The translations under genes were made by a program, and so were the position numbers. Of a DNA stretch of 64,000 bases, positions 45,282 through 61,645 are shown in pieces (positions within the stretch are counted from its first letter, which is position 1; every line of letters starts with the position of its first letter). The notes below the pieces were generated by a model. It searched no databases. It saw only the letters and a list, made by a program, of their open reading frames with translations, and was not told where the DNA came from. The DNA is from a virus: IMG/VR virus record IMGVR_UViG_3300033141_003544, positions 1-64,000 of that record. One strand, written 5' to 3'.

Positions 45282-45707
45282 TTATACTTTTTCTATTTTA
45301 ATATCTTTTAATGTTTTTACAAATAAATCTCTATCCCTTGATATATAATCTAATTTATAATAAATTTTCTTTACATTGGCTGCTATAAGTATTTTATAAC
45401 AATTGATACAAGGATTATGTGTAACATAACAAATTAATGTTTTATACCTTTTAGGTAAGTTTGCAACTGCTCCCGCTTCACTATGGATAGTCCTAATACA
45501 ATGGTTTGCATTGTGTTCTTCACTAAGTAAACAACCTACATCTTCACAATGTGGACTGCCTGATGGAGCTGAATTATAACCTACTGAAACGACTCGATTA
45601 TCTTCAGTAGTTAAAACACACCCTACTTTTAGTTTCCCACACGTACCACGTTCTTTTACTATTTCAGCCATTTTCATAAAATATTCTATTCTAGTTAAGC
45701 GGCCCAT
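45282..45707 (-). CDS. dCMP deaminase
   Basis: This protein has 141 residues from ATG 45707, which has GGAGGGG five bases upstream (a TTG at 45719 is possible but weaker). It has H-S-E (His75, Glu77) and P-C-I-N-C (Cys100, Cys103), the zinc and proton-shuttle site, plus extra Cys/His (C-G ... V-G-C, H-C-E) as in phage dCMP deaminases. It makes dUMP from dCMP. Its 5' end overlaps the LAGLIDADG gene. Confidence 0.9.
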   Translation of the reverse strand: MGRLTRIEYFMKMAEIVKERGTCGKLKVGCVLTTEDNRVVSVGYNSAPSGSPHCEDVGCLLSEEHNANHCIRTIHSEAGAVANLPKRYKTLICYVTHNPCINCYKILIAANVKKIYYKLDYISRDRDLFVKTLKDIKIEKV

Positions 45708-46500
45708 AGACCCCTCCAAAAATTTTTCTTTTCCTATCCAATGAAATTGTTGAACCCTTATATAAATACACCATAAATTTCTCTACCTCGTTCATTGAAT
45801 TAACCCTATAACTATATAAAGGGTTTTTTCTTCCTTTTATTGAACAATTAACCCATCCAAAACCTACTATTTCTTTAATGAAATTCATAACTGATTCAGT
45901 TCCTGCAATAGATACTATCCCTCTTTTGTATTTATTAAGATGAATACAACCATCACCGTCGAAATACCCTCTTATCCAATGTCTAATCAAATCCATTGAA
46001 ACATTTTTTGGGGGCTCTAATACCAAAGACTTTCTTTCTAAAATACCTTTATTGATTAAATCATAATACATTTTATTTGAGCTTAACAGATATCTGTATC
46101 GATAGAAGACTTTACCGTTTAATTTTCTTGATCTCTTACGAGGTTCAAAATTGGCTTCAATTGCTTTTCCAAATTTCTTCAAATGTTTTAAATCTTTTTC
46201 AGCTAAACTTAAATTTATTCTCTTCCTTTTATATCTTGGAGGTGGTGTATATAAACTCCCATCTGCTGCAATCATTCCCAACCAATAAGCTTTTTCTTCA
46301 TTATCAATTGTTTCAAAATAATTTTCATTAAAGGATTTCCATTTACCTTTAGTAGGTAAATGAGATAAGTTATATTCTTTTATTCTTTTTGCAATAGCTT
46401 GTCGTTTCTTTAACCCAAATACCTTTGCTATTTCTTTTTGAGAATGTTTACCGTCTAATAGTTTTTTAAGTTCTTCTGAATTAACTTCTACTTTCTTCAT
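45691..46500 (-). CDS. LAGLIDADG homing endonuclease, free-standing
   Basis: This protein has 269 residues. An N-terminal helix-turn-helix (H-S-Q-K-E-I-A-K-V-F-G-L) is followed by two LAGLIDADG motifs, Y-W-L-G-M-I-A-A-D-G and W-I-R-G-Y-F-D-G-D-G. It overlaps the truncated deaminase upstream (ATGA) and the intact deaminase downstream. There are no intein splice motifs. Confidence 0.85.
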   Translation of the reverse strand: MKKVEVNSEELKKLLDGKHSQKEIAKVFGLKKRQAIAKRIKEYNLSHLPTKGKWKSFNENYFETIDNEEKAYWLGMIAADGSLYTPPPRYKRKRINLSLAEKDLKHLKKFGKAIEANFEPRKRSRKLNGKVFYRYRYLLSSNKMYYDLINKGILERKSLVLEPPKNVSMDLIRHWIRGYFDGDGCIHLNKYKRGIVSIAGTESVMNFIKEIVGFGWVNCSIKGRKNPLYSYRVNSMNEVEKFMVYLYKGSTISLDRKRKIFGGVYGPLN

Positions 46501-46853: not shown

Positions 46854-46910
46854 AAGATTCCTCAAAAATTTTTATATTTTAATATAGAAATTTTATATTG
46901 AAATTCAACA

Positions 46911-48286: not shown

Positions 48287-49237
48287 TTATCTGATATTTG
48301 ATAATTCTTTTATAGAATCTTCATGTCTTAAAATCTGTTTGCAGATGTCCTCTATTATCTGAGGAACAATACTTGACCCCGCTTGATCATATTGTAAGGT
48401 TTTAGGCCCATAAAATATAAAATCATCAGGAAAGCCCTGACAACGAGCAACTTCTCTAACGGTTAAAACTCTTGACTCCCATGGGTGAACATATTGTGTC
48501 CTGTGACTTGTCATTGTAGGAGCGGGTTTATCAGGGTCCAATCTCCTATTATTTTGAGTCCCATAATAGGACTCGCCAATTTTTAGTTTTCTAAAACCCT
48601 CTGCCCTTTTTTGTGAATGTTTAGAAGGTATATGATTTGGTGTATTATCTAAATCTTTCAAAATATCTTTTAAATTTTTAAAATTTTTTATTTTTGGATT
48701 AGGAAACCAATATTTAAAATAACCTAAATCTCCTATTATAAAAAGTCTTTCCCTATTTTGTGGTACATTATAATATTTAGCATTTAAAAAATGTTTCTGA
48801 ATATTATAACCTTTTAACTCTATAAATAATTTTTCATTAGTAGTATAGTTGATTAAGGATACACCATATTCGTTGATCCATATACTATTAGCAACTGAAG
48901 TTAAATTCTCTAAAATAAAATATTTGGGTCTTCTTTTTTGTATTACTTTTAAAAACTTGTAAATTTCCCAATCTTCTATTTTAAAATCTAATCTATTTTT
49001 CTTTCTAACGGCTAAATTACTAAAAGCTTTACAAGGAGGTTGGCCTATAATAATATCTACTTCACGATCATCAAACCAACTTATCTCCTTTGAAATACAA
49101 ATATCATTAAAATTTTTAAAAATGGTTTCTGATATCGACCAATCTCTATTGTCCTCTAAATAAACGGGTTTCATTCCACACCATTTTGCCCCTAATAATC
49201 CGGAACCGATACCACCATAAACACTACCTATTCTCAT
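48287..49237 (-). CDS. C5-cytosine DNA methyltransferase
   Basis: This protein has 316 residues. Motif I is G-S-V-Y-G-G-I-G-S-G; motif IV is G-Q-P-P-C-K-A-F-S with catalytic Cys69; motif VI is I-L-E-N-L; motif VIII is Q-N-R-E-R-L; T-V-R-E-V-A-R-C-Q-G-F-P and G-S-S-I-V-P are motifs IX-X. No restriction gene is adjacent, so it is probably an orphan enzyme protecting phage DNA or acting as part of a modification set. Its start overlaps the upstream gene. Confidence 0.85.
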   Translation of the reverse strand: MRIGSVYGGIGSGLLGAKWCGMKPVYLEDNRDWSISETIFKNFNDICISKEISWFDDREVDIIIGQPPCKAFSNLAVRKKNRLDFKIEDWEIYKFLKVIQKRRPKYFILENLTSVANSIWINEYGVSLINYTTNEKLFIELKGYNIQKHFLNAKYYNVPQNRERLFIIGDLGYFKYWFPNPKIKNFKNLKDILKDLDNTPNHIPSKHSQKRAEGFRKLKIGESYYGTQNNRRLDPDKPAPTMTSHRTQYVHPWESRVLTVREVARCQGFPDDFIFYGPKTLQYDQAGSSIVPQIIEDICKQILRHEDSIKELSNIR

Positions 49238-49419
49238 ATTTTCCTTTCTATTATACTAAAATCTATATCTTCAAAATCTCCCATAATATTATTAACTATT
49301 TCAATTTCTTTATAGGGTATATCTGAATCTTTTACCATTTTCGACCATAATTCTTCTAGAGCAGTTTCTAATTCATTTCTGGCGTTTATAACTTTTCTGT
49401 AAGAAATGGGAGTTATCAT
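49234..49419 (-). CDS. Hypothetical acidic protein, 61 aa
   Basis: It is helical and acidic (N-E-L-E-T-A-L-E-E-L-W) and has no known motif. Its stop overlaps the methyltransferase start, and it begins immediately after the thymidylate-synthase-like gene, so all three are co-translated. Confidence 0.5.
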   Translation of the reverse strand: MITPISYRKVINARNELETALEELWSKMVKDSDIPYKEIEIVNNIMGDFEDIDFSIIERKI

Positions 49420-51366
49420 CTAATATATTTCCTTATTCTTATAATCCTTTTTATATATATGTAAACTATTGCAAAAATAAGTTAAATCTCCAACTGTCAC
49501 TCCTATTTGTTTAGTTATATATTGTTGAAGTTTTATTGCTAATGCAATATCATTAGGAAAATGAGTAACAAAATCACAAGATCTCATTATATAGGACATG
49601 TGAAGTTTGTTCTCCCTTCTGAGAAACATATACCCCGTTGAACAGTTATGAACTGAAGCTCCTAATAAAGAATAACTTTCATCTTCTTCTACTTCTAAAT
49701 TATAAACCTTTATTGATTGAATATATTTTTTTACTTCTATTCCTTTTACTTTATAATAAGCTTTACCTTTATTAAAACTTACTGTATTAATATTATTGTT
49801 TTTCCAATTGCCTTTTATATGAGGAAGACCAGGATAACATAGTTCTTTTAAAGATCTATTGGATGTGGAGATACTATATGAAGAATGATAAAAATGTCTC
49901 CCCTCAATTGCATGTCCGGATCTAATAGGTATGAACTGTATACTATAACTCACATTATTTCTTAGCAGTATTAGGCCTAATTGCAAAATTAGATCTTTAG
50001 AACAAGAAGTAAAAGTTAAACGACCTGTTTTTCCTGTGGATTTTTTATTTTTTGTTACATACCCATCTCCTCTTGTATATCCTACAACAATTTGGAGTTG
50101 CTTTTTAGGAGGTAAATACATAAATGATTTTGGAATAGTTTTTGTGTGAGAGTGTGAACCTCCAAACAAATTCCAAAAAAGATGACCTACTATTTTAGAA
50201 GCATAAGTTATTCTATAATTATTACCATCCTCTTTCCAATTAAATTTAGGTTTTTTTAATCCAAACTTTTCTAACATTATTTTTGCTACATCTTCACCAT
50301 ATTTTTCTTCTCCTTTTGCAAAATAAAATTTTATTTGTGATTTCCCATCTCTACCTCCCGTTGCACAACCGTCTGCTAAAAAGTAACCTACTAACCGTAA
50401 AAAATCTTCATCTACTTGGATTATTTTAGGAATACTATGACAGTTCTTTTTATCAGCAGCTTTAATAGTTTTTGAACTTATCTCAATAAAATCTTCAGTG
50501 TTAATATAATCTGTTATATTTAAATATTTTATATCTTTTCTACTATTATTAAAGTTAAATTCTATATAATCTCCTTCTTTAATTTCAGAAGCACTTAACC
50601 ATTTTGATTTAACTTCACGAATATTCTTAGAGGTTATTTTTTCTTTAGAGGAATAAGTTAAAATAGGGTGGTCTTTTGTACAAATTATATCTTCCCCGCC
50701 ATATCTTTTTATTTTTATAAGTTCATTCGTTTCATTCTCAAAAATTTTATTGACTCTTTTAAATCTACCTTTATGTGTTAAAACTTTATCTCCTTCTTTA
50801 ATATTTTCAATATTTGTCCATTTAAAATCCCTTGTAATAATTTTTGTTTTAACTGGAAAGCATGGGATACGTTTTTTACCACCCATATTTTCTAAATCAA
50901 ATACATTATTGTGTATTTCTATTATTGCTTGTCTTGTATTTGGTCGATCATGTAATTCTTGTATAACTTTTGATAACTGGGGTTTTATTCTTTCATTGTA
51001 GGTATAACTGAATTTATTTTGACCTTTTTCATCTTGATGTAAAAACTCTTGCCAAACGTCCTTTCTTAAAGTCCAAGCCATACCTGGATTTACAAAATGT
51101 TGACTAACCCTTTCTTTGGCTTCAGCTTCTATCCATTCCATTGACAGACCTGCATTATATTCTTTATTAATATAATCTATCATTTCCTTGATTCTCTCTC
51201 CTGTTTTTAATATAAAACAAGTCCCTCTAATTTCTTTTGTATAATAATCCTCATCCCCTTCAATAATTTTATCTTGCATAGAATAACCTTTTACTTCAGT
51301 ACCCATTTCAATAAGGTTTCTTTCTTCCTCTTTTATCATTTGAAGAGTATCACTATATATTCTCAT
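49420..51366 (-). CDS. Thymidylate-synthase-superfamily enzyme (probable dCMP-acting), with intein
   Basis: This protein has 648 residues, 242 after intein removal. The spliced active site reads R-I-P-C-S-T-G-Y-M-F, with the catalytic Cys, then M-R-S-C-D-F at the phosphate-binding Arg/Ser/Asp positions, then F-P-N-D-I-A. In thymidylate synthase the last Asn position is uracil-specific; here it is Asp, as in T4 dCMP hydroxymethylase. It therefore may make 5-hydroxymethyl- or 5-methyl-dCMP. This specificity is by-eye alignment. The end of the protein (S-L-H-I-Y) matches the C-terminal dUMP-binding strand. Confidence 0.75.
   Translation of the reverse strand: MRIYSDTLQMIKEEERNLIEMGTEVKGYSMQDKIIEGDEDYYTKEIRGTCFILKTGERIKEMIDYINKEYNAGLSMEWIEAEAKERVSQHFVNPGMAWTLRKDVWQEFLHQDEKGQNKFSYTYNERIKPQLSKVIQELHDRPNTRQAIIEIHNNVFDLENMGGKKRIPCFPVKTKIITRDFKWTNIENIKEGDKVLTHKGRFKRVNKIFENETNELIKIKRYGGEDIICTKDHPILTYSSKEKITSKNIREVKSKWLSASEIKEGDYIEFNFNNSRKDIKYLNITDYINTEDFIEISSKTIKAADKKNCHSIPKIIQVDEDFLRLVGYFLADGCATGGRDGKSQIKFYFAKGEEKYGEDVAKIMLEKFGLKKPKFNWKEDGNNYRITYASKIVGHLFWNLFGGSHSHTKTIPKSFMYLPPKKQLQIVVGYTRGDGYVTKNKKSTGKTGRLTFTSCSKDLILQLGLILLRNNVSYSIQFIPIRSGHAIEGRHFYHSSYSISTSNRSLKELCYPGLPHIKGNWKNNNINTVSFNKGKAYYKVKGIEVKKYIQSIKVYNLEVEEDESYSLLGASVHNCSTGYMFLRRENKLHMSYIMRSCDFVTHFPNDIALAIKLQQYITKQIGVTVGDLTYFCNSLHIYKKDYKNKEIY
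49645..50862 (-). mobile_element. Intein with LAGLIDADG endonuclease before the catalytic Cys
   Basis: This intein has 406 residues (169-574). It starts C-F-P-V-K-T-K-I-I-T, has T-K-D-H-P in block B, and ends S-V-H-N followed by Cys575. The endonuclease motifs are L-R-L-V-G-Y-F-L-A-D-G and I-V-V-G-Y-T-R-G-D-G. The +1 residue used for splicing is the catalytic Cys of the enzyme. Confidence 0.9.
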
Positions 51367-51404
51367 TTCTTATTATTCCTTTTGCAATTTTCATAAATAC
51401 GCAT

Positions 51405-51785
51405 TTATATTACTTCTTCTTCAGTTAATATATTCTTATCTGGATCTCCAATAAAAACTATATTGTTTGGATATGCATGTTTCATAAATAAATTTCTTAT
51501 TTCTTTAACTGAATAACCTGCCAATCCAGTTCCTATAGCTGTTAAAAGAAATATTTTATCTTTATTTAATCTAGCAAAATTTATGAAATCAGATATATAA
51601 TTATCTATTATATTTAATGGGAGTGTTTTCAAATTTTCATCTTTTGTTGGAATAGCATAAGAGTTACCTTGTATACCTTCTCCAATACCTTTAATTGCTC
51701 CATAATACTTATAAGCATATAGGGCTGCACCCCTACCATGTTTTCCTGCTTTGTTAGAACCAAAAACAAAAATATTAGATTTCAT
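51405..51785 (-). CDS. Macro-domain-like protein
   Basis: This protein has 126 residues. N-I-F-V-F-G-S-N-K-A-G-K-H-G-R-G-A-A, then N-S-Y-A-I-P-T-K-D, then L-L-T-A-I-G-T-G-L-A-G-Y are the conserved loops of small macro-like proteins that bind ADP-ribose or related phosphoesters. It could reverse host ADP-ribosylation defences or clear nucleotide by-products. The substrate is not shown by sequence. Confidence 0.7.
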   Translation of the reverse strand: MKSNIFVFGSNKAGKHGRGAALYAYKYYGAIKGIGEGIQGNSYAIPTKDENLKTLPLNIIDNYISDFINFARLNKDKIFLLTAIGTGLAGYSVKEIRNLFMKHAYPNNIVFIGDPDKNILTEEEVI

Positions 51786-51791
51786 AAATTC

Positions 51792-51878
51792 TCATTTCTT
51801 GATATTTTTCTTTTTCTTCTTTTTCTTTTTGATTAATTTATCTCTTTGTATAGGAAAAGCTTGTGATGTTACAGCCAT
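51792..51878 (-). CDS. Lys-rich micro-protein, 28 aa
   Basis: ATG 51878 has a strong AAGGAGG upstream. The frame encodes a short N-terminal part followed by eight consecutive Lys residues and N-I-K-K. Its stop lies just before the macro-like start. It is probably translated, but might be a coupling leader; function unknown. Confidence 0.45.
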   Translation of the reverse strand: MAVTSQAFPIQRDKLIKKKKKKKKNIKK

Positions 51879-51896
51879 AATTCCCTCCTTTAAATA

Positions 51897-52148
51897 TTAT
51901 CCCACTCTTTTTAACTCGTTAATGATTTCTTTAACTAAATTCTCCATAAATTCTCTTGTCCACCAATCTTTGAATTGTCTTATAAATTCTTTTGCTCCGT
52001 CTTTTGCTACAATCTTATCATTAAATGTTTCCATATCACAATCAAGAGAATCAAGAATATCTTGATCTACTTTATATATGGAAATCAAGGCAACAGTTTG
52101 GCGATTTATAAGTATTGGTCTACGAGATTCTTCATTTATTATACCCAT
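51897..52148 (-). CDS. Hypothetical protein, 83 aa
   Basis: It has a short beta part (R-P-I-L-I-N-R-Q-T-V-A-L-I) followed by helices with W-W-T-R-E-F-M. Its ATG follows GAGGAAATT. A perfect 13-bp inverted repeat lies 20 bases upstream. No family was recognised. Confidence 0.5.
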   Translation of the reverse strand: MGIINEESRRPILINRQTVALISIYKVDQDILDSLDCDMETFNDKIVAKDGAKEFIRQFKDWWTREFMENLVKEIINELKRVG

Positions 52149-52168
52149 AATTTCCTCATTTGATACTA

Positions 52169-52200
52169 TTCAGCGTTGGGTTTAATTACCCAACGCTGAA
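52169..52200. repeat. Perfect 13-bp inverted repeat
   Basis: The arm TTCAGCGTTGGGT (52169-52181) and its complement (52188-52200) are separated by six bases. It is far more GC-rich than its surroundings. There is no T-run on either side, so it is not a standard terminator. It is a candidate operator or RNA structure controlling the 83-residue gene. Confidence 0.7.
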
Positions 52201-52241
52201 TCCCAGTTATACATGCGCCTGTGAATAGTTGTCGCAAATCC

Positions 52242-52346
52242 TTATTTCTTTTTATTTGGTTTACAATTACCCCTTTTTAAACCTCCCCTTGGTTTACTTG
52301 GTCTTGGTGACTGTTTTCTTGGTCCCCGTCCGTCTCGGTCTGGCAT
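52242..52346 (-). CDS. Small Arg/Lys/Gly/Pro-rich protein, 34 aa
   Basis: ATG 52346 has AAGGAGG upstream. It begins M-P-D-R-D-G-R-G-P-R-K-Q and ends with G-N-C-K-P-N-K-K-K. The M-P-x-x-D-G-x-G-P opening resembles the small DUF5320-type peptides known in prokaryotes. It could bind nucleic acid. It is the first complete gene after the strong leftward promoter. Confidence 0.6.
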   Translation of the reverse strand: MPDRDGRGPRKQSPRPSKPRGGLKRGNCKPNKKK

Positions 52347-52358
52347 ATTAGACCTCCT

Positions 52359-52412
52359 TTACTCAAGATATGTTCCACATTTACTACAATATTGATTAGC
52401 TGAAGATGATTC
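52359..52412 (-). pseudogene. Remnant 3' end of a small zinc-ribbon gene
   Basis: The frame encodes E-S-S-S-A-N-Q-Y-C-S-K-C-G-T-Y-L-E and a stop directly before the AGGAGG of the next gene. A stop precedes it and there is no start codon. It looks like the tail of a zinc-ribbon protein whose 5' part was lost; now it is part of the leader behind the promoter. Confidence 0.45.
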
Positions 52413-52430
52413 TTATAAATAATTTATTAT

Positions 52431-52459
52431 AATATACAACAAAGAAAAAACAATGTCAA
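52431..52459 (-). promoter_or_regulatory. Strong leftward sigma70-type promoter
   Basis: On the minus strand TTGACA (52459-52454), 17 bases, TATATT (52436-52431). It has the same boxes and spacing as the promoter at 6534. It should drive the small genes, the macro-like gene, thymidylate-synthase-like enzyme, methyltransferase and primase. Confidence 0.8.
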
Positions 52460-52493
52460 CCTATTTCAATTGAATTTTCATTTTTATTTATTA

Positions 52494-53426
52494 CTAAGTA
52501 CTCGTTGTAATTGTATATTCACCATATTGTTTTTTCCAAAGACTTCGTAAAAAGTTACTTAAAAACAAAATAGGTTGAGTTTTATAGGAATAATTTATCT
52601 CCCAAGGGAATATATGTTTTTCTTCATAATGCCATGCCATATCGTATTCAATATCTTTTCTATTAGTACCTAAAGATTGTGTAAAATCCTCAAAATTATA
52701 CTCATTATTTTCCGGATAGTTCTGTTTTGCATTATTTAATTCGAATACTGTATTTTCTATATAACTTCTTTCTTTCCTTTTTCCTTTTCCTTTTTTAATT
52801 ATCCTTTTTTTATGACAGTAATAGTGAGAAGCTTTAAGATAAAAATTACCAGGTTCAAGTTCTAACATCGATGCGATATACCGTTGTAAGAAAGTGTGGT
52901 GTAAGACATCGTAAGGGAGAAGGTTGATAACATCCGAGCTCCTCATGTTGACAAACAATAACACTTTGTTTTCTCTTATCAAGAAATGAAGATTTAATGT
53001 GCAAGGAGTTCTGGGTCTTGGATGTATTATATCTAAATGTTCTGGTTGCCATATACTTATTATTGCTTCCCGTTCTTGCCTGGCTTTTAGCTTTTTCAAC
53101 ACTTTGGGAATAGCTGGGACTAAGTACTCGCTGTAATTGTATATCCACTTTCCACCTTCCTTCTCAAGTTTACGTTTCCAGTTTGGACGAAATAAATAAG
53201 AAGTTCCTGGATTTCGATAATAAGGGTCTAGTCTATCTGACAATTCTGCAAATCCCCATTTCCAATTTTTATTCAAAGAAATAAGACAGTTGTTTGGATT
53301 AGTTAAGCAAAAATCTAAATTTACTTTATCTATAGTCTTACCTAATTCCTTACCATTATGAAGAATATCTTCTAAAATCTCAATATATATGCTCTGAAAG
53401 TTATCATTTATTGGATACATATTCAT
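52494..53426 (-). CDS. Thymidylate-synthase-superfamily enzyme, second copy (dNMP hydroxymethylase-like)
   Basis: This protein has 310 residues. The active site is R-T-P-C-T-L-N-L-H-F-L, with R-S-S-D at the phosphate-binding site 20 residues on, then L-P-Y-D-V. As in the other copy, Asp stands where thymidylate synthase has its uracil-recognising Asn, suggesting dCMP as substrate. The N-terminal part has W-G-F-A-E-L-S-D-R, reminiscent of synthase helices. A basic Lys/Arg insertion occurs near residues 205-220. Confidence 0.65.
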   Translation of the reverse strand: MNMYPINDNFQSIYIEILEDILHNGKELGKTIDKVNLDFCLTNPNNCLISLNKNWKWGFAELSDRLDPYYRNPGTSYLFRPNWKRKLEKEGGKWIYNYSEYLVPAIPKVLKKLKARQEREAIISIWQPEHLDIIHPRPRTPCTLNLHFLIRENKVLLFVNMRSSDVINLLPYDVLHHTFLQRYIASMLELEPGNFYLKASHYYCHKKRIIKKGKGKRKERSYIENTVFELNNAKQNYPENNEYNFEDFTQSLGTNRKDIEYDMAWHYEEKHIFPWEINYSYKTQPILFLSNFLRSLWKKQYGEYTITTST

Positions 53427-53530
53427 TCTTTTTCATATTCATTTAGTTTATCTAATATTTTTGTTAATAAACCATTAGTACTAAAAACTCCTATGCATAT
53501 TATAATTAAAACTAATAATTCCCAATTCAT
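53423..53530 (-). CDS. Small membrane peptide, 35 aa
   Basis: ATG 53530 has GAGGAG upstream. One clear transmembrane segment is present (L-L-V-L-I-I-I-C-I-G-V-F), followed by a charged helix. Its stop overlaps the next gene start. It could be a membrane regulator or small holin-like peptide; this is a guess from topology. Confidence 0.5.
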   Translation of the reverse strand: MNWELLVLIIICIGVFSTNGLLTKILDKLNEYEKE

Positions 53531-53583
53531 TTTTTATTCTCCTCTTTTTTAAAAAATTCTTTGAATTGTTCAAGTTCAGTCAT
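53527..53583 (-). CDS. Micro-ORF, 18 aa
   Basis: ATG 53583 with AGAGG upstream; the charged peptide M-T-E-L-E-Q-F-K ends in a stop overlapping the next ATG. It is likely a coupling leader for the membrane peptide. Short length keeps confidence low. Confidence 0.3.
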   Translation of the reverse strand: MTELEQFKEFFKKEENKK

Positions 53584-53586
53584 TTT

Positions 53587-56226
53587 TTACCTCTCGTTAT
53601 AGAGTTTTACTAATTTTTTAACCATTATTTCTAGACTCATATTTTCTTGAATATAATTTGATAAGTCAAAGTTTGAATTGTATTTTTCCATCTCATTTTC
53701 CAAAGTTTCGACAGTTATATTTTTATTGTTTGTTCTTCCCGAACAATTTTTATTTAAATATTTTTTAAATATATTTTTTGAAGATACTATACCATCCATT
53801 CTATTAGGGTTAGCGACAATAACATTTTTACCCATAGCTAACCCTTCATAAACGGACCTACCAACTCCTATAACAACATCTGCTTCATTCAATATATGAT
53901 GAACATCCCATGTATATTTACCTCCCAAACCTATTATAGTTAAATTAAGGTTCAGTTTTTCTGCAAAATGTTCAAATACATTCTTTTCTATTTTACCTTC
54001 TGAAGATCTGACATGATTGTTGAGAACAATCAAGTTTCTAGGATTTAAGAAATTCCGTCTTATTTTTTTAAATTTATAAATATCAATTCCATTATGTATA
54101 ATAGGTATTTCTTTTTTATAATTTGATAAATTTTGTAAGTTAGACCTCACCTCTTTTGAAACTCCAACTAATTTATTAATATAAGGATAAGTATTAGATT
54201 CTGGGGTTTCTATATCCTCTAAAACTCCATGAGATACATATAATATTTTATTTTGTACTTTTAAGTCTTGTGATACGGATAAAATATCTCTTAAACAACT
54301 CCGATGATGGCAATGGATTATATCTAAATTGTGGTTTTGAATTACATATCTTAAACTTCCTATATCTGGTACGATATTAACTCCCAAATATTTCAATCTT
54401 TCTGAAACGTCTCCATGGTGTTGAGAGTAAACAAAAACCTCCGAACCATTATCTTTTAAAACCTTAGCTAAATCGTACACATATCTTTCTGTTCCTCCAT
54501 AGTATTTTAAACTCACATTTGTTATAAGAATTTTATCTGGAACTCCTTCTATTTTTATTTTCTTCTCCCCATACCATTTGTTTATCAGTTTATTATAGTT
54601 ATCTTTTTGAATTTTAGCCCATGTAGAATTTCTTTCTCTCTTCCAAGTATGATATACTACTACATCATTAGCTACCAATAAATGATAACCTGCTTTAGTT
54701 AATTTCATTGATAAGTCGTCATCATCACAGCCCCCAGAATTACCAAATAAACTGTTATCCATACCTCCAACTAGTTCCCATGCATCTTTTCTAATCGCTA
54801 TACAAAAACCAATCAACAAATCCGTTTCAATATAATTACCCTTATTCAAGTCTGCATTCTTTTTTGAAAACTCTACTATACCATCAATATCTAAATCTTT
54901 TGGCATTTCTATGTATTGGAGTCTATGGTGATTAACGTTGTCAGATACAGGACCCACCGCTCCAACTTTTCTATCCACCCTAAAATACTTTATTAATTCC
55001 TCCTTCCAATTATAAGTAAAAATAAGATCATAATTACCAAAAATCAATATATTGTTTTTAGCTAATTTCGCCCCTTGATTACAAGCAGCAGTCCAACCTA
55101 TATTAGTATCATTTATCACGGAGTGGATATATGGACTCTGTTGGGAATATTGACTAATTAACTCTTTTAAATCATCTGATGGTTCATTTGCAATTATAAT
55201 AAGTTCATCCTTGTAATTCAACCATTCAATAGCAGTTTCTATAGTTATTTCTGTATCTTCTATCTTATTCCCATAAGTTACAATTATAAGTGAAACCTCA
55301 TCAAAACTCATCTCTTCTTTTCCCCTACCCGCCTCTTCATCCAATCTGTCAAAAAGATCGGTATCAAAAGTTAAACCTTTTGCTTTGTATGACCTTTCTA
55401 AAGCCATTCTAACATTAAATATAAAATCATGACGTGTTTTATCATCTCTTTTTACCCATGCCTCTTCTAATAATTCAATACATTGGTCATGTTTCTTTAA
55501 ATTTTGACATAATATCCCTGTCTCATATAAAGTGTTAAAGTTTCTGGTTGTTTTTAATTTTTCCATCCCATAATTGTAATACTTTAATTGTTTTTTTAAT
55601 AGGTCTTCTTCTTCATGTTGAATATGGTGAACAGTTATTTCAGGTCCAACATCAACAGGAACTATATGTTTACAATCGGGGTCTATTTTCATAATAGACT
55701 CCCTGACTTGTTCATGTATTTTCCCGGTCCAATATAGTTGAGGAATATTCTGAAATAAACGTAGTTTATATGAAAAATTAAACCATTTAAATTTATACTT
55801 CTCTGCAAATATCCCCTTCGCCAATCTATTGGTACCGTAAATTCTGTTAGTATAATTGATGGTTGCAACCATATAAGCTAAGTTTTGGGGCTGTTTAGTT
55901 GCCCATTTGATCTTATAGTGTTCCCAATCTGGTAATATTTCATCAGCGTCAATAGAAAAGATCCACCCACAAGTAGCTTTTGAATCCGCGTAATTTCTAG
56001 CAGCTGCATAATCATCTATCCATTCAAAAGAATATACCTTATGAGTATATTCTTTTGCTATTTCTAGTGTTTTATCTTTAGAACCAGTATCAACTATAAC
56101 TATTTCATCAGCTATAGGAACAATACTGTCTAGACACCTTGCCAAATCAGCCTCCTCATCCCTTACAATTAAATCAAAGGAAACTGTTGAAGGAACATTG
56201 AATTTTTTGTATAGACTATTGGCCAT
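53587..56226 (-). CDS. Three-domain glycosyltransferase (GT2-GT2-GT4)
   Basis: This protein has 879 residues. Domain 1 (about 15-250): F-D-L-I-V-R-D-E-E, V-D-T-G-S-K-D-K-T (45-53), S-I-D-A-D-E (91-96). Domain 2 (about 300-540): V-S-L-I-I-V-T-Y-G-N, N-I-G-W-T-A-A-C-N-Q-G-A, and a D-D-D-L-S-M-K-L type end. Domain 3 (about 565-875): I-L-I-T-N-V-S-L-K-Y-Y-G-G-T-E-R, then R-S-V-Y-E-G-L-A-M-G-K-N-V. It could build a multi-sugar chain by itself. It lies between two thymidylate-synthase-like genes and next to UDP-glucose dehydrogenase. Confidence 0.85.
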   Translation of the reverse strand: MANSLYKKFNVPSTVSFDLIVRDEEADLARCLDSIVPIADEIVIVDTGSKDKTLEIAKEYTHKVYSFEWIDDYAAARNYADSKATCGWIFSIDADEILPDWEHYKIKWATKQPQNLAYMVATINYTNRIYGTNRLAKGIFAEKYKFKWFNFSYKLRLFQNIPQLYWTGKIHEQVRESIMKIDPDCKHIVPVDVGPEITVHHIQHEEEDLLKKQLKYYNYGMEKLKTTRNFNTLYETGILCQNLKKHDQCIELLEEAWVKRDDKTRHDFIFNVRMALERSYKAKGLTFDTDLFDRLDEEAGRGKEEMSFDEVSLIIVTYGNKIEDTEITIETAIEWLNYKDELIIIANEPSDDLKELISQYSQQSPYIHSVINDTNIGWTAACNQGAKLAKNNILIFGNYDLIFTYNWKEELIKYFRVDRKVGAVGPVSDNVNHHRLQYIEMPKDLDIDGIVEFSKKNADLNKGNYIETDLLIGFCIAIRKDAWELVGGMDNSLFGNSGGCDDDDLSMKLTKAGYHLLVANDVVVYHTWKRERNSTWAKIQKDNYNKLINKWYGEKKIKIEGVPDKILITNVSLKYYGGTERYVYDLAKVLKDNGSEVFVYSQHHGDVSERLKYLGVNIVPDIGSLRYVIQNHNLDIIHCHHRSCLRDILSVSQDLKVQNKILYVSHGVLEDIETPESNTYPYINKLVGVSKEVRSNLQNLSNYKKEIPIIHNGIDIYKFKKIRRNFLNPRNLIVLNNHVRSSEGKIEKNVFEHFAEKLNLNLTIIGLGGKYTWDVHHILNEADVVIGVGRSVYEGLAMGKNVIVANPNRMDGIVSSKNIFKKYLNKNCSGRTNNKNITVETLENEMEKYNSNFDLSNYIQENMSLEIMVKKLVKLYNER

Positions 56227-56228
56227 AG

Positions 56229-57008
56229 TTATAGATCCTTTATTGACAAACCTGATTCCTTTAATAGGTCATGAAATCTAAGTAACGTCCTTTTGATACT
56301 TTGCATTTTAATTTCCTTAACAACATTAATATCTGAATATTTCTCCTTAAATAATTCCAGCATATGTTTAAATTGTGGATTCCAAGCTGTTATCCCATAC
56401 TGTCTGAGAAATAAAGCAATAGTTCCTGCCCAACCTATAGTTATAAAACTATTCATTATAATACAGTTTAATTCAAAACACCTACATTTTGAGGTTTTTT
56501 CAACTTCTTTGATAATCTTTCTAATTAATAAAAAATCCATAAATAATTTTGGTAAAACTTCAGTATTTCTAAAAACTAATTGAGCTGAGAAATCACTCAT
56601 AGTGGTCTTTAAAAAATAAAGACTGTCCAAGCATTTCAATTTTGCCGTTTTATCATAAGGATCTCTTGAAAAGTATACAACCCCTCTTGCTTGTTTTGGG
56701 TGGAAATCCTTTAAATTAGTTTTTAATATACCTAGTTGTGCCTGCACTCTGTCGTCAAAATAGTCATGTTCTAATTTTGACATTTTCATTTTATAACTAT
56801 ACTTACTGTAGTGAAAAAAATCTCTTACAATACAACCATCTTGACTAACCAACTTTATTTTTTCCGCACTTCCATATGTCAATCTTTTAAAAATATAAGG
56901 ATAGTTATATTGAACTCCATCACCACAACATATATCATTAACAAGATTAAACCATAAAATATCTAAACCTTCTCCTTCTACTATATTGATTTGCTTCATA
57001 TTCTTCAA
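56229..57008 (-). CDS. Divergent thymidylate-synthase-like protein
   Basis: This protein has 259 residues. G-E-G-L-D-I-L-W-F-N-L opens like a thymidylate synthase. L-K-C-L-D-S-L-Y-F, then V-F-R-N-T-E-V 21 residues later, matches the spacing of the catalytic Cys to the R-S-x-D motif (20 residues in the other two copies). Asp is replaced by Glu. The following helix (M-D-F-L-L-I-R-K-I-I) and N-C-I-I-M-N-S-F-I fit the C-terminal strands. It is remote, and activity may differ. Confidence 0.4.
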   Translation of the reverse strand: MKNMKQINIVEGEGLDILWFNLVNDICCGDGVQYNYPYIFKRLTYGSAEKIKLVSQDGCIVRDFFHYSKYSYKMKMSKLEHDYFDDRVQAQLGILKTNLKDFHPKQARGVVYFSRDPYDKTAKLKCLDSLYFLKTTMSDFSAQLVFRNTEVLPKLFMDFLLIRKIIKEVEKTSKCRCFELNCIIMNSFITIGWAGTIALFLRQYGITAWNPQFKHMLELFKEKYSDINVVKEIKMQSIKRTLLRFHDLLKESGLSIKDL

Positions 57009-57020
57009 AAATAAAGGTCT

Positions 57021-57842
57021 TTATTCCTCTTTCCTTATCTTTTTGTTAAACTTATCAACACTTTTTAGTATATCCATATCTAAACCTATTTCTCCCATTT
57101 CTCCAATAAGTGCCTCAACATCTTTTGGAAGACAATTTCCACCATATCCCAATTTTCCATCATGACCTGGAACATCCATATGACTGTTTCCTATTCTCAT
57201 ATCTGCTTGGACTAACTTCTTAACTTCATTATAATCAACACCTAGTTTATTACATATCAAATTTATCTCATTAAAAAATGAGATCTTTGTAGCGAAAAAA
57301 GCGTTACAAGCATATTTTACTAACTCAGCAGTAGTAAAGTCTGTAATAAAAATTGGAGTATAATCAAACCTTAATCTAAATAAGTCTATCACTTTTTTAA
57401 CTATTATATCTGTTGAACCTGTAGAGTTGGCCAATATTATCCTTGTTGAGTTTATAAAGTCTAATTTAGCAGTTCTAGCTGTTAAAAATTCTGGACTGTA
57501 GATTAGATTAAAACAAGGATATGTTTTTTGCAAATAATCCATAGTTTTTGGAATTACTGTACTTTTAACGATAAATATTTTATTTACATGGTCTTCTGGG
57601 TCTATTGTTATTTTTCGGAAAACATCTTCTAACTCATAGGGGTAGAATAAATAATGCTGAGTAGGAGTGGATACACATATAAAAATAAAATCCCCATGGT
57701 CTATTACATCATCAAAGTTATCAAAACCTTCTTTATATTTATCATAAATTTTAATATCCGCATGCAAAGAAAAACCATGTGCAATAGCTGACCCTACATA
57801 ACCAAAACCTATTATAGAAACTTTTGGTAATCTGTTCTTCAC
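57021..57842 (-). CDS. UDP-glucose/GDP-mannose dehydrogenase family, short form
   Basis: This protein has 273 residues. I-I-G-F-G-Y-V-G-S-A (10-19) is the NAD site; Y-S-P-E-F-L-T-A-R is the mid motif; G-G-N-C-L-P-K-D holds catalytic Cys237. The family is normally near 400 residues; the third, nucleotide-sugar-binding domain is missing. The enzyme would oxidise UDP-glucose to UDP-glucuronate. Next to glycosyltransferases it may supply an unusual sugar donor. Confidence 0.8.
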   Translation of the reverse strand: MKNRLPKVSIIGFGYVGSAIAHGFSLHADIKIYDKYKEGFDNFDDVIDHGDFIFICVSTPTQHYLFYPYELEDVFRKITIDPEDHVNKIFIVKSTVIPKTMDYLQKTYPCFNLIYSPEFLTARTAKLDFINSTRIILANSTGSTDIIVKKVIDLFRLRFDYTPIFITDFTTAELVKYACNAFFATKISFFNEINLICNKLGVDYNEVKKLVQADMRIGNSHMDVPGHDGKLGYGGNCLPKDVEALIGEMGEIGLDMDILKSVDKFNKKIRKEE

Positions 57843-57869
57843 AAAAATACCTCCATATCTTTCTATTGT

Positions 57870-58172
57870 TTACGTCTTTTTAAAATTTGTAATATCTTTT
57901 GCTTCTATTATTTCTAAATCACTTACATAACGATATAGGTCATAAGTCTTGTATCCACTTGTTCCTGTTACGGGTACATCAAACCTAATAAAATAATATA
58001 AAGGAGGGTCTAATTTATTACCAAATATTGAAACAGTTTCCCTTAAAAGTCCATGATCAATATTATCTTTAGCAAATGACTTGTGTAATTCTTTAAAAAG
58101 TGAGTCATTCCTCCTTAATGGATTAGTTACTAAAAATACTCTTGTTAAACCTTCTTCATTGATTTCTCTCAT
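57870..58172 (-). CDS. Hypothetical protein, 100 aa
   Basis: It is alpha/beta with V-F-L-V-T-N-P-L-R-R and a beta stretch P-P-L-Y-Y-F-I-R-F. It could be a small regulatory protein. No motif was recognised. It shares a base with the upstream stop. Confidence 0.5.
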   Translation of the reverse strand: MREINEEGLTRVFLVTNPLRRNDSLFKELHKSFAKDNIDHGLLRETVSIFGNKLDPPLYYFIRFDVPVTGTSGYKTYDLYRYVSDLEIIEAKDITNFKKT

Positions 58173-58684
58173 TACATCCTCGGTAAATGTTTTTTAAGGT
58201 TGACATCTAACAGGTTGACTGTGACAAATAGATTATTGCAAGCGTCTGTCACATTGTCTCCTATTGCGTCATATCTCTTTCCTCTATTACTTGTTATTTT
58301 TGCAATTATTTTCCCATCTTTATTTGAATTTAAAATTATTTTAATAGTTTGTCCATGTCTATTAATCATTTCATCATACAAAGGGTCTAAGATTTTTTTC
58401 CCGGTTTTTTGTTCAATAAAATAAGCACTATTTTTTATAGCTTGAAAAGGGATCGGTCCTGCATTAGGGACTACTCTAGTTTCAATTGTTTTTAACATAT
58501 TTGTAATTGCCCAAATTAATTTACGACTATAACCCCACAACCATTGTCCTCTGGATTTTATACAAGCTATAAAGACCCCAGGAGACCTATGTTCCAAAAA
58601 CAGTTCAATATCTGAATAAGAGTTGTTCTTTAATTCTCTTGTCAGTTGATCGTTTACAGCATAACCTCTTTTATCGAAAATCAA
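58172..58684 (-). CDS. Hypothetical protein, 170 aa
   Basis: It has an N-terminal Y-S-D-I-E-L-F-L-E-H segment, a Trp-rich middle (Q-W-L-W-G-Y-S-R-K-L-I-W) and a C-terminal beta domain (I-K-I-I-L-N-S-N-K-D). I do not recognise it. Tight spacing to the ClpP-like gene (two bases) suggests joint function. Confidence 0.5.
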   Translation of the reverse strand: MIFDKRGYAVNDQLTRELKNNSYSDIELFLEHRSPGVFIACIKSRGQWLWGYSRKLIWAITNMLKTIETRVVPNAGPIPFQAIKNSAYFIEQKTGKKILDPLYDEMINRHGQTIKIILNSNKDGKIIAKITSNRGKRYDAIGDNVTDACNNLFVTVNLLDVNLKKHLPRM

Positions 58685-58686
58685 TA

Positions 58687-59145
58687 CTATTTCACTCCTA
58701 TTTTGTCAATAATCCCATAAGTTATTGCTTCTTCTGCAGACATATATTTCGTATTTTTCATGTCTTTTTTTACTTTTCTTCTGGTATAATTTGAATGTTT
58801 AATAATAGCATTTGTTATAAATTCATCTTGTATTATTGTGTCTTTTATATGTCTTTGGACTACTCCGATATCACCACTCGTTTCGGCCCAAACGGAATGT
58901 ATCATTATCCTGGAATTTGGAGTAGCATACCTCTCTCCTTGAGTTCCTCCTGCCAACAATACTGTTGCCATACTCCAAGTATAACCTATACAAATAGTTC
59001 TTATTTTTACAGTTGATTCTTGCATTACATCATAGATACTTATTCCAGCTGGGACGGAACCTCCTGATGAACTGATAAATAAAGTAATAGGTTCATCAGA
59101 TTGATCTTGGAGATACAATATCTTCTCAATAATGTCTACAGACAC
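58687..59145 (-). CDS. ClpP-like serine protease
   Basis: This protein has 152 residues from GTG 59145. I-S-S-S-G-G-S-V-P-A-G is the oxyanion strand. The catalytic Ser is in Y-T-W-S-M-A and the His in I-M-I-H-S-V. The C-terminal R-K-V-K-K-D-M-K-N-T-K-Y-M-S-A-E-E-A helix is typical. The family is nearer 195 residues; the missing N-terminal strand is encoded just upstream in the same frame behind a TGA. It may degrade host proteins or process phage proteins. Confidence 0.8.
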   Translation of the reverse strand: MSVDIIEKILYLQDQSDEPITLFISSSGGSVPAGISIYDVMQESTVKIRTICIGYTWSMATVLLAGGTQGERYATPNSRIMIHSVWAETSGDIGVVQRHIKDTIIQDEFITNAIIKHSNYTRRKVKKDMKNTKYMSAEEAITYGIIDKIGVK

Positions 59146-59202
59146 TATTGGATTTATTTCTCATACTAAAAAAAGCCTTCGTGGGTTTAAAGAACTTAAC
59201 AT
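59146..59202 (-). other. Upstream in-frame segment of the clpP-like gene, with TGA codon
   Basis: ATG 59202 has AGGGAGA six bases upstream. Thirteen codons (ending R-R-L-F-L-V) lead to TGA at 59163-59161, then E-I-N-P-I-V runs into the GTG start of the protease. R-x-x-F-L-V-G-E-I-N is the normal first strand of the family, so the TGA seems to stand in place of a Gly (GGA). It could be a nonsense mutation, sequencing error or readthrough site. Confidence 0.65.
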
Positions 59203-59214
59203 GTATCTCCCTAT

Positions 59215-59844
59215 TTAATATTTTGATCTTTGTCTAAACTCGTTAATTATGCTTTTTCTTATATACAGATTATAAATATCGTCTGCTGTTAAATCTAATC
59301 TTAGACATAGGTCTAAAAAAGCAACTAATACTTTATTCAAGCATAAATAGAATTTGTTTTTGTCTGTAAGTATTTGAGATTGTTTCCACGGTTTATTTTT
59401 TAATACGTTTCCCACTAAACCTAATCTGTAATGGATTTCATGATAGTACTCTTTCACATCTCTCCGATCTCCTATAAAAGGATGTCTTGTATTAAAATAT
59501 TCCTCTAAACTTGGAATTTTCTTTTTATCTATTTCAGTTCCAGTTAGTTTAAATATTTCTACTATAAAATGGAGAGCATCACTTAACTCTTCTAAGTAGT
59601 GAAGTGGATCTTTGTGTATTATTCTAGCTTCCCAACTTTCAGACAATTCTTCCGCAACTCTCCAGAGAAAATCTTTGATAATAGTTTGATTTTCTTTTAT
59701 ATCTATATCGAAAGGCCAGTCAGGTAACCCTTCAATAGTTTTGTATTCCTTCATTAGTTCTTCCTGCCTTTGGAATATAAGTTCCAATCTATTGTTTTTC
59801 TTTGGGGCAGGAATTTCATTTTTATTAACGTCTTTTATATTGAT
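59215..59844 (-). CDS. All-alpha NTP pyrophosphatase (dimeric dUTPase/MazG-like)
   Basis: This protein has about 209 residues. F-Q-R-Q-E-E-L, W-R-V-A-E-E-L-S-E-S-W-E-A and L-E-E-L-S-D-A-L-H-F-I form the E-x-x-E ... E-x-x-D metal site of dimeric dUTPases. It would remove dUTP or a competing dNTP, in line with modified DNA. Its start is odd: AGGAGG (59855-59850) precedes ATT/ATC at 59847/59844, and the first TTG (59787) is 60 bases further on. Confidence 0.7.
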   Translation of the reverse strand: MNIKDVNKNEIPAPKKNNRLELIFQRQEELMKEYKTIEGLPDWPFDIDIKENQTIIKDFLWRVAEELSESWEARIIHKDPLHYLEELSDALHFIVEIFKLTGTEIDKKKIPSLEEYFNTRHPFIGDRRDVKEYYHEIHYRLGLVGNVLKNKPWKQSQILTDKNKFYLCLNKVLVAFLDLCLRLDLTADDIYNLYIRKSIINEFRQRSKY

Positions 59845-59859
59845 AATAACCTCCTATCT

Positions 59860-60366
59860 TTATTGTAGATTTCCTTTTTTAAATTCTTTTAATATTTTAG
59901 GACTTAAAGGTAATCCCCATTTTTTGCGCAAAATAATAATAGACATTGTAGCATAGTTTATCATGTCAATAAAAGCGTCTTCTACTCCTTCAAAATATAG
60001 TCTTGCTAAATCCACTGTTTTTATTACTTTTCCACTTGATTTCTCTATCATTTCAATTTCGGAGTTTATTTGTACATTATTGCTATAAAAATCTACCTCA
60101 CTTTCATCATACAATTCACCTTCAAGAAATTTTTCAATCCTTGAGATTTTCATTTTAATTTTTTCCATAACTTTCCCTACAGCAGCTTTTTGGTCTAAAT
60201 CCCCATAACTTCTCTTTCCATAACTGATATGTTTAGGAATCATAACCCTAAAAGCTTCTTTTAGTATATCTTTAAATATATCATCATAATACTCTGATCT
60301 TTCAACTCTACAGTCCTTTTTCATTTTCTCTATCTCTTCTTTAGAAAAATCTAGTTCGTTATCCAT
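59860..60366 (-). CDS. DUF1599-like (nucleotide modification associated) protein
   Basis: This protein has 168 residues. It has H-I-S-Y-G-K-R-S-Y-G-D-L, K-I-K-M-K-I-S-R-I-E-K-F-L and a final F-I-D-M-I-N-Y-A-T-M-S-I. This fits the DUF1599 pattern (Pfam Nmad1), a helical family seen with phage nucleotide-modification genes. The match is by eye. Confidence 0.5.
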   Translation of the reverse strand: MDNELDFSKEEIEKMKKDCRVERSEYYDDIFKDILKEAFRVMIPKHISYGKRSYGDLDQKAAVGKVMEKIKMKISRIEKFLEGELYDESEVDFYSNNVQINSEIEMIEKSSGKVIKTVDLARLYFEGVEDAFIDMINYATMSIIILRKKWGLPLSPKILKEFKKGNLQ

Positions 60367-60862: not shown

Positions 60863-61645
60863 TTATTTAGACGGATATAAAGGCTTTATTGCCTTTTTTA
60901 ATTCACGCTTTGTTAATTTCCGCAATACCTTGAATTTCTTAACCCGAAATTTACCATCTGATAATATTGGAATAGCCACAATGTCTTTTGCCGTAAACTC
61001 AACTTCAATATACATCCGATTTTCTATATCCAAATTAGAATTTTGTAAACACCGTTCAAGTGTGGCAACATTTAATCCTTTCCCACAGTTTTCTCGTTCA
61101 TCTGCATTACAATCTAGTTCTCTATATATTTTGCCAATCTCATAACGCTTGTTTTGATATAGAGAGATGCCACATTTATTCAAACATTTGTATGCAATTA
61201 ATTTGCCTGGCTGAGATTTGAGAATATTAAGTGGAGAACGAATATGAAAAGGAATATTTTTTGCGCCAGTAAGGTCTGCATACCTAAGATCTGCGTCATT
61301 GAAATCTACGTCACTAAAATTTGCACCCCTAAAGTTTGCACCTCTAAGATTTGTATAACTAAGATCTGTTTTATTAAAGTTTGTTTCATTAAGTTTTGCA
61401 TAATTAAGATTTGCAACACTAAGATTTGCATAGCTAAGGTCTGTTTTATTAAGATTTGCATAACTAAGATTTGCATAACTAAGGTTTGCGCCACTAAGGT
61501 CTGCGTTACTAAGGTCTGCGTTACTAAGGTTTAATTTCTCACAAGAATAACCATCATACCCACTTACGCTTTCTTTATTTGCAACACGCTCCAGAAATTC
61601 TTTTTTGGTTAGCTTTTTTATTTTAGTTGGCTGTTTTTTTGCCAT
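60863..61645 (-). CDS. Pentapeptide-repeat protein, 260 aa
   Basis: Residues 37-132 are about 19 repeats of A-[N/D]-L-x-x type (N-A-D-L-S, G-A-N-L-S, Y-A-N-L-N, K-T-D-L-S), forming a right-handed beta-helix that mimics B-DNA in the Qnr/MfpA group. The remainder is a separate alpha/beta domain with Y-I-E-V-E-F-T-A-K-D. It could protect DNA or block a DNA-binding host protein. The repeat is not proof of gyrase binding. Confidence 0.85.
   Translation of the reverse strand: MAKKQPTKIKKLTKKEFLERVANKESVSGYDGYSCEKLNLSNADLSNADLSGANLSYANLSYANLNKTDLSYANLSVANLNYAKLNETNFNKTDLSYTNLRGANFRGANFSDVDFNDADLRYADLTGAKNIPFHIRSPLNILKSQPGKLIAYKCLNKCGISLYQNKRYEIGKIYRELDCNADERENCGKGLNVATLERCLQNSNLDIENRMYIEVEFTAKDIVAIPILSDGKFRVKKFKVLRKLTKRELKKAIKPLYPSK
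61256..61530. repeat. 15-bp tandem repeats encoding the pentapeptide array
   Basis: Imperfect 15-base units such as AAGATTTGCATAACT repeat about 18 times. They encode the pentapeptides and keep period five codons. Long open frames on the plus strand here are a by-product of this periodicity. Confidence 0.8.

What the first reader, a model, noticed from the sequence alone, without database searches (positions are those of the whole stretch)
48287..60366. Candidate DNA hypermodification system: base hydroxymethylation plus sugar transfer
A C5 methyltransferase, TS-fold enzymes, a triple-domain glycosyltransferase, UDP-glucose dehydrogenase, NTP pyrophosphatase and a DUF1599-like protein lie within 12 kb on one strand, with dCMP deaminase close by. 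Together with the DegT/epimerase cluster they could make a glycosylated cytosine, as in T4 (glucosyl) or RB69 (arabinosyl), but with different enzymes and possibly a di- or trisaccharide.
Basis: inference. Interest (0 to 1): 0.85.

Follow-up and report, generated by a model that had tools for sequence, protein, structure and literature searches.

The report
Phage cytosine-modification operon with sugar genes
This phage very probably makes a chemically altered form of the DNA letter C using three related enzymes, one from an overlooked family that travels with the others in many phages, and it may also hang sugars on that letter, though the sugar step is not shown.

Summary
The genes reported are present and lie on one strand of a 105.6 kb phage record. 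Two proteins, TS1 (interrupted by an intein at its catalytic Cys) and TS2, are thymidylate-synthase homologues. Both carry Asp at the dUMP/dCMP-selecting position 177 and lack His147, the two changes that mark phages with modified cytosine. An unannotated 259-aa protein between the UDP-glucose dehydrogenase and the glycosyltransferase is a third, divergent TS-fold protein ("TSL"). A relative modelled on a 20-sequence alignment folds with pLDDT 92; its closest PDB match is the phage dCMP hydroxylase AfhB.

A search with TSL alone recovered the order NTP-pyrophosphatase, TSL, TS, PolA in 18 of 20 viral loci. The window keeps this order, with dehydrogenase, glycosyltransferase, TS2, C5-methyltransferase and unrelated genes inserted. 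Cytosine modification at the dCMP stage is therefore well supported.

Sugar transfer to DNA is not. None of 20 relatives has a GT2 domain, and the glycosyltransferase's N-terminal domain is closest to GmaR and SunS. C5-methyltransferases in the window and in 4 of the 5 longest relatives argue against complete replacement of C.

The DegT/epimerase cluster sits beside tail genes and is probably separate. RB69's base is arabinosyl-5-hydroxycytosine.

The parts
59215..59787 (-). All-alpha NTP pyrophosphatase (dUTPase_2/MazG type); predicted to supply dCMP from dCTP, as T4 dCTPase does; first gene of the conserved core
   Evidence: PF08761 E 7e-9; homologues immediately upstream of TSL in 18 of 20 loci
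57021..57842 (-). UDP-glucose dehydrogenase lacking the C-terminal UDP-binding domain; predicted UDP-glucuronate supply; inserted between pyrophosphatase and TSL
   Evidence: PF00984/PF03721, TIGR03026 E 2e-50 but below its curated cut-off, catalytic motifs kept, relative in phage SP-15
56229..57008 (-). TSL: divergent thymidylate-synthase-fold protein with catalytic-type Cys126, Arg147 and Asp158 (= Asp177)
   Evidence: hhalign vs TS profile E 1.7e-5; invariant residues in the 20-sequence alignment; model of relative L056 pLDDT 92, best PDB hits AfhB dCMP hydroxylase and MilA
53587..56226 (-). Three-domain glycosyltransferase (GT2-GT2-GT4), starting 2 bp after TSL; substrate unknown
   Evidence: Pfam; catalytic-type motifs in all three domains; N-terminal domain closest to GmaR and SunS
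52494..53426 (-). TS2: TS homologue with Asp177/Thr147, predicted dCMP 5-hydroxymethylase-like
   Evidence: PF00303 E 2e-12; residue table; similar to TS beside annotated beta-glucosyltransferase genes in ATCCB and nattely
49420..51366 (-). TS1: TS homologue with Asp177/Ser147, carrying a 406-aa intein at its catalytic Cys; core gene partnered with TSL in relatives
   Evidence: 39-42% identical to intein-free homologues in gut phages; clade support 99/96
48287..49237 (-). C5 cytosine DNA methyltransferase, two genes downstream of TS1 with overlapping or abutting ORFs; role in the pathway unclear
   Evidence: PF00145 E 1e-38; motifs and gaps; family also present in 4 of 20 relatives' records
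45282..45719 (-). dCMP deaminase; core gene also found between TS and PolA in L056
   Evidence: PF00383 E 5e-19; L056 order
41305..44982 (-). UDG-exonuclease-PolA fusion with intein; end of the conserved core
   Evidence: PF03167, PF01612, PF00476, intein; PolA homologues follow TS in the relatives
59860..60366 (-). Weakly DUF1599-like protein (nucleotide modification associated domain 1)
   Evidence: PF07659 21.7 bits, below the 25-bit cut-off; PHROG 1485

Best explanation
The region is an expanded version of a phage operon that makes a C5-modified dCMP for incorporation into DNA. The pyrophosphatase would convert dCTP to dCMP. TS1, with its TS-fold partner TSL and probably TS2, would modify dCMP at C5, most likely to 5-hydroxymethyl-dCMP. 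A kinase not found in the record, perhaps the host's, would rephosphorylate it, and the UDG-PolA polymerase would incorporate it, probably replacing only part of the cytosine. In this phage a UDP-glucose dehydrogenase and a three-domain glycosyltransferase flank TSL and may add glucuronate-containing sugars to the new hydroxyl. Shown here: gene content, residues, TS fold of the TSL family, conserved order. Inferred: the reactions, incorporation, and above all the sugar transfer. My estimates: dC modification at the nucleotide stage 0.8; hydroxymethyl as the group 0.55; sugar on the DNA 0.4.
For: TS1 and TS2 carry Asp177 and Ser/Thr147 and keep Cys146, Arg166, Asp169, Glu58 and Tyr94 in alignment with T4 gp42, whereas E. 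coli ThyA has Asn177/His147. In MetaGPA, positions 177 and 147 were the two that best separated TS of cytosine-modified from TS of unmodified phage contigs (PMC8670742). TSL aligns to the TS profile with Cys, Arg and Asp177 matched. The model of a relative (pLDDT 92) best matches AfhB dCMP hydroxylase, MilA CMP hydroxymethylase and TS. A TSL-only search found TS next to TSL in 19 of 20 loci, with pyrophosphatase and PolA in the same order in 18; L056 adds dCMP deaminase at the window's position. Some relatives carry a separate ThyX or ThyA, so TS1 is not needed for dTMP there; L034 has both ThyA (His147/Asn177) and a TS1-type gene. UGDH-TSL-GT are 12 and 2 bp apart. D177 TS genes sit next to annotated beta-glucosyltransferases in ATCCB and nattely.
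Against: No chemical data. GT2 domains are absent from all 20 relatives' records, though many are fragments. The GT's N-terminal domain resembles GmaR and SunS, families of protein or peptide glycosyltransferases. Unrelated genes (ClpP, primase and others) are inserted in the same interval, so position is weak evidence for GT and UGDH. No thymidylate-kinase-type kinase was found. C5 methyltransferases in the window and 4 of 20 relatives need unmodified C5 positions. TS1's best PDB hit by sequence is the AfhB/RB69-type dCMP hydroxylase, not a hydroxymethylase. The window's own TSL gave only a poor model (pLDDT 41).
Confidence: 0.5

Rival explanations
1. The core does modify dCMP, but the glycosyltransferase and UDP-glucose dehydrogenase serve another purpose, such as glycosylation of virion proteins or host surface glycans.
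For: GT N-terminal domain is closest to GmaR and SunS (NCBIfam SunS, below cut-off); 20 relatives with the core lack GT2; this phage has a second sugar cluster at 23-30 kb beside tail genes; unrelated genes are also inserted in the operon.
Against: UGDH and GT directly flank TSL with 12 and 2 bp gaps in the replication block, far from structural genes; other D177 TS phages have transferase genes adjacent (ATCCB, nattely, SC_6).
Confidence: 0.4
2. TS1 and/or TSL hydroxylate dCMP at C5 with flavin, giving 5-hydroxycytosine as in RB69-type phages, rather than hydroxymethylating it.
For: AfhB (9iqu/9iqc, dCMP with FAD) is the best PDB match of TS1 by sequence (E 1e-11) and of the TSL model by fold.
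Against: RB69 ORF048c and its relatives (Atu_ph04, RHph_Y68) have Phe at position 58, no Trp80 and Asn169, whereas TS1 keeps Glu58, Trp80 and Asp169, and the tree separates the clades with 99-100% bootstrap support. TSL's N-terminal half is too divergent to judge.
Confidence: 0.17
3. The TS enzymes make 5-methyl-dCMP (XP12-like), leaving no hydroxyl for sugars.
For: N177D alone turns ThyA into a dCMP methylase (cited in PMC8670742); hydroxymethylase and methylase cannot be told apart from the residues examined.
Against: A C5 DNA methyltransferase would then be partly redundant; TS2 resembles TS genes next to glucosyltransferases.
Confidence: 0.1
4. The TS proteins are ordinary or degenerate dTMP synthases and there is no base modification.
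For: Homologues are annotated 'thymidylate synthase'; the window record has no other Pfam-detectable TS and no ThyX; dCMP deaminase makes dUMP.
Against: Asp177 in both enzymes and in TSL; some relatives have separate ThyA or ThyX; pyrophosphatase and TSL linkage.
Confidence: 0.05

Closest known systems
T4 dCMP hydroxymethylase (gp42) with alpha/beta-glucosyltransferase
   Same: TS fold with Asp177-equivalent, Cys, Glu58 and Trp80; pyrophosphatase in the pathway; possible later glycosylation
   Different: TS1 is in another clade with a TSL neighbour; no T4-type glucosyltransferase among the proteins scanned; PolA replaces PolB; a C5 methyltransferase is present
RB69/HY126 AfhB 5-hydroxy-dCMP synthase (arabinosyl-5-hydroxycytosine phages)
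   Same: TS-fold dCMP enzyme; best PDB match of TS1 (sequence) and of the TSL model (fold); sugar genes nearby in RB69
   Different: TS1 keeps the folate-type residues that AfhB-type enzymes lost; separate clade
TS-carbamoyltransferase contigs of MetaGPA (5-carbamoyloxymethylcytosine)
   Same: D177 TS linked with pyrophosphohydrolase and dCMP deaminase (PMC8670742)
   Different: No carbamoyltransferase in this record or in the relatives searched; TSL was not mentioned in the passages I read
Bacillus phage SP-15 glucuronolactone-phosphate and glucosyl hypermodified uracil
   Same: Phage UDP-glucose dehydrogenase and glycosyltransferases in a base-modification gene cluster
   Different: SP-15 modifies a uracil derivative; its UGDH is longer (436 aa by its coordinates); unrelated gene order
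Lactobacillus phage ATCCB / Enterococcus phage nattely
   Same: D177 TS next to a glycosyltransferase gene
   Different: Annotated beta-glucosyltransferase; no TSL recognised next to TS; no UGDH annotated nearby

Membership tests
dCMP-specific thymidylate synthase superfamily enzymes | Asp at E. coli TS position 177 with catalytic Cys146 and Arg166 | tested here: met
   TS1, TS2; equivalent residues invariant in TSL
dCMP-specific thymidylate synthase superfamily enzymes | Loss of His147 | tested here: met
   Ser in TS1, Thr in TS2
T4-type dCMP hydroxymethylase | Glu58/60 and folate-side Trp80 retained | tested here: met
   TS1 and T4 gp42 alike; the TS2 alignment in this part is less sure
T4-type dCMP hydroxymethylase | Folate-dependent 5-hydroxymethyl-dCMP formation | not testable with these tools
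   needs enzymology
RB69/AfhB 5-hydroxy-dCMP synthase | Clade membership and Phe58/Asn169 pattern | tested here: not met
   TS1 and TS2 fall outside the clade and have Glu58/Asp169
Canonical thymidylate synthase | Asn177 and His147 | tested here: not met
T4-type DNA glucosyltransferase system | Homologue of a known DNA alpha- or beta-glucosyltransferase | tested here: not met
   only GT2/GT4-type domains in the proteins scanned; not every ORF of the record was scanned
T4-type DNA glucosyltransferase system | Glycosylated cytosine in virion DNA | not testable with these tools
   no virion DNA
UDP-glucose 6-dehydrogenase | NAD and central domains with catalytic Cys/Lys | tested here: met
UDP-glucose 6-dehydrogenase | C-terminal UDP-binding domain | tested here: not met
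   protein ends after the central domain; no match to a C-terminal domain
TSL-TS core operon (described here) | Order pyrophosphatase, TSL, TS, (dCMP deaminase), PolA on one strand | tested here: met
   window coordinates

The most novel reading that the evidence does not exclude
TSL is a new functional class of the thymidylate-synthase superfamily, either a dCMP-binding enzyme doing a second C5 reaction or an obligate subunit of TS1. The phages that carry it, including the mycobacteriophage Muddy, would then have an undescribed cytosine modification, which in this phage is further capped with a glucuronate-containing oligosaccharide.
Probability: 0.2. Interest if true: 0.85.

Novelty: new variant of a known kind. 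Interest (0 to 1): 0.62.

Why it matters
It names an overlooked protein family (TSL) with a confident fold and a fixed genomic partner. That makes cytosine modification a testable prediction in cultivable phages (Gordonia phage Vine, Mycobacterium phage Muddy) as well as in uncultured gut and environmental ones. The number of TS-fold proteins per phage, the co-occurring C5 methyltransferase, and the variable neighbours (glycosyltransferase plus UGDH here, IspD plus LicD in SC_6) suggest one core with interchangeable decorations.

Tried and rejected
Single-protein scans of viral contigs with TSL, TS2, PolA, UGDH and GT found no relatives; success came only with alignments. The first AlphaFold run, on the window's TSL with 5 sequences, was poor (pLDDT 41), and its fold matches are not relied on; the family representative L056 with 20 sequences was good. 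TS1 as an AfhB-type hydroxylase was considered because of its PDB ranking and set aside after the tree and residue table. Hypothetical neighbours in RHph_Y68 and SE13 were tested as TSL and rejected on alignment. Rfam found no intron or other RNA at 40-64 kb. Carbamoyltransferase, TMP-kinase and ThyX searches were negative in the window's record. The preprint on glycosylated 5-hydroxycytosine (10.1101/2025.06.16.659550) was not held. The DegT/epimerase cluster was considered as sugar source and not adopted for lack of any link. Restriction-site avoidance was considered and not computed, because either outcome would be ambiguous.
Full report
Setting. The window is bases 1-64000 of a 105,577-base virus record. 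What look like tail and other structural genes run on the + strand up to about 22 kb. From 23.8 kb onwards the - strand carries a sugar cluster and then the replication block. A Por_Secre_tail domain outside the window hints at a Bacteroidota-like host; this is weak.

Observation. The reported genes are real: C5 methyltransferase, two TS homologues, a GT2-GT2-GT4 protein, UDP-glucose dehydrogenase and a dUTPase_2-type pyrophosphatase. The DUF1599 match is below Pfam's cut-off. TS1 is split by a 406-residue intein whose +1 residue is the catalytic Cys; the intein's N- and C-terminal splice regions match NCBIfam models around their cut-offs. The spliced enzyme is 242 aa and 39-42% identical to intein-free proteins of gut phages.

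Substrate. In alignment with E. coli ThyA and T4 gp42, both TS1 and TS2 have Asp at position 177 and Ser or Thr at 147. PMC8670742 found that these two positions best separate TS of cytosine-modified phage contigs from TS of unmodified ones. TS1 also keeps Glu58, Trp80, Tyr94 and Asp169. The AfhB/RB69-type dCMP hydroxylases do not keep 58, 80 and 169, and they form a separate clade, even though AfhB is TS1's best PDB match by sequence. The AfhB stretch printed equals the RB69 ORF048c sequence translated. TS2 is a long branch and its place is unsure.

A third TS-fold protein. The 259-aa ORF at 56229-57008 has no Pfam or PHROG match. The profile of its family aligns to the TS profile with E 1.7e-5, matching Cys126 to the catalytic Cys and Asp158 to Asp177. 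An alignment of 20 such proteins keeps that Cys, Arg and Asp invariant, the window's included. AlphaFold on the window's own sequence was poor. On the relative L056 with the 20-sequence alignment it gave pLDDT 92, and the best PDB matches are AfhB with dCMP, MilA and viral TS; the viral library gives unnamed proteins and then TS/dCMP hydroxymethylases. One deposited genome labels such a neighbour 'pyrimidine hmase synthase', so automatic annotation has seen the resemblance, but PHROGs 13667 and 34294 are unnamed. I call the family TSL.

Synteny. A scan with a TSL-only alignment returned 25 loci. Of 20 examined (some near-duplicates), 19 have a TS homologue next to TSL, and 18 show pyrophosphatase, TSL, TS, PolA in that order; the two exceptions are short stretches. 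L056 also has dCMP deaminase between TS and PolA. The window has the same order on one strand: pyrophosphatase 59.2 kb, TSL 56.2, TS1 49.4, dCMP deaminase 45.3, PolA 41.3. The pyrophosphatase-PolA interval is 14.2 kb here and 1.7-4.0 kb in the relatives. Gordonia phage Vine, Mycobacterium phage Muddy, a Desulfofustis phage and a spring-water phage have TSL-like genes beside or near their TS, and all these TS share a clade with TS1 (99/96). Some relatives carry a separate ThyA or ThyX, so TS1 is not needed for dTMP there.

Sugars. UGDH and GT directly flank TSL with gaps of 12 and 2 bp. The GT keeps catalytic-type motifs in all three domains, and UGDH its Cys and Lys, but UGDH lacks the C-terminal domain. 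There are precedents for D177 TS next to transferases: ATCCB and nattely (annotated beta-glucosyltransferase) and SC_6 (IspD and LicD). SP-15 has a UGDH in a base-modification cluster. Against: no GT2 domain in any of the 20 relatives' records, the GT's N-terminal domain is nearest to GmaR and SunS, and ClpP, a primase and other genes are also inserted in the interval. I put sugar on DNA at about 0.4.

C5 methyltransferase. The enzyme has standard motifs and matches the Dcm model above its cut-off. C5 methyltransferases also occur in 4 of 20 relatives' records, all among the 5 longest. A C5 methyltransferase has no substrate if every C carries a C5 group, so either replacement is partial or the enzyme acts elsewhere. 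I cannot resolve this.

Missing steps. No thymidylate-kinase-type enzyme was found in the record, so rephosphorylation is assigned to the host by inference; a T4 gp1-type kinase was not searched for specifically. There is no ThyX.

Comparison. The system works like T4-type and RB69-type cytosine modification at the nucleotide stage. It cannot be filed with either: TS1 is outside both by clade, and no T4-type glucosyltransferase was found. PMC13390438 reports that RB69-type DNA carries arabinose directly on 5-hydroxycytosine, which corrects the analogy in the finding.

Verdict. Cytosine modification by a TS-TSL core: likely (0.8). Hydroxymethyl as the group: slightly more likely than not. Sugar on DNA: open. 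The new element is TSL and its fixed partnership, rather than the sugar genes.

Noticed in passing
window 41305-44982: PolA is fused at its N-terminus to a uracil-DNA-glycosylase domain and carries an intein with LAGLIDADG.
   Followed up: partly
window 49420-51366; 41305-44982; L003:3734-6112; L003:912-1892: Intein-rich phage: intein signatures in TS1, PolA, a DnaB-type helicase and a second helicase whose parts lie in separate ORFs with a LAGLIDADG ORF between.
   Followed up: partly
window 45282-46865: Two dCMP deaminase genes; the upstream one is truncated after its zinc-binding region next to a LAGLIDADG endonuclease gene.
   Followed up: partly
window 23106-30105: Sugar cluster beside tail genes: GTs, DUF2334 deacetylase-like, methyltransferase, epimerase, DegT aminotransferase; probably for virion or host-surface glycans.
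   Followed up: partly
L010:13154-14774: Gut phage SC_6 has IspD-type cytidylyltransferase and LicD genes beside the TS/TSL core, which could mean a phosphodiester-linked decoration of its modified base.
   Followed up: partly
L034:2667-6352: Locus with order TSL, ThyA (His147/Asn177), TSL, TS1-type: canonical and modified-type TS side by side.
   Followed up: yes
records G003, G007, G014, W02 (relatives): C5 cytosine methyltransferases in 4 of the 5 longest TSL-phage records, at odds with complete C5 substitution.
   Followed up: partly
L004:11-379: Small protein with a type IX secretion C-terminal sorting domain (Por_Secre_tail), a possible host clue.
   Followed up: no
window 60863-61645: Pentapeptide-repeat protein just upstream of the cluster.
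   Followed up: no
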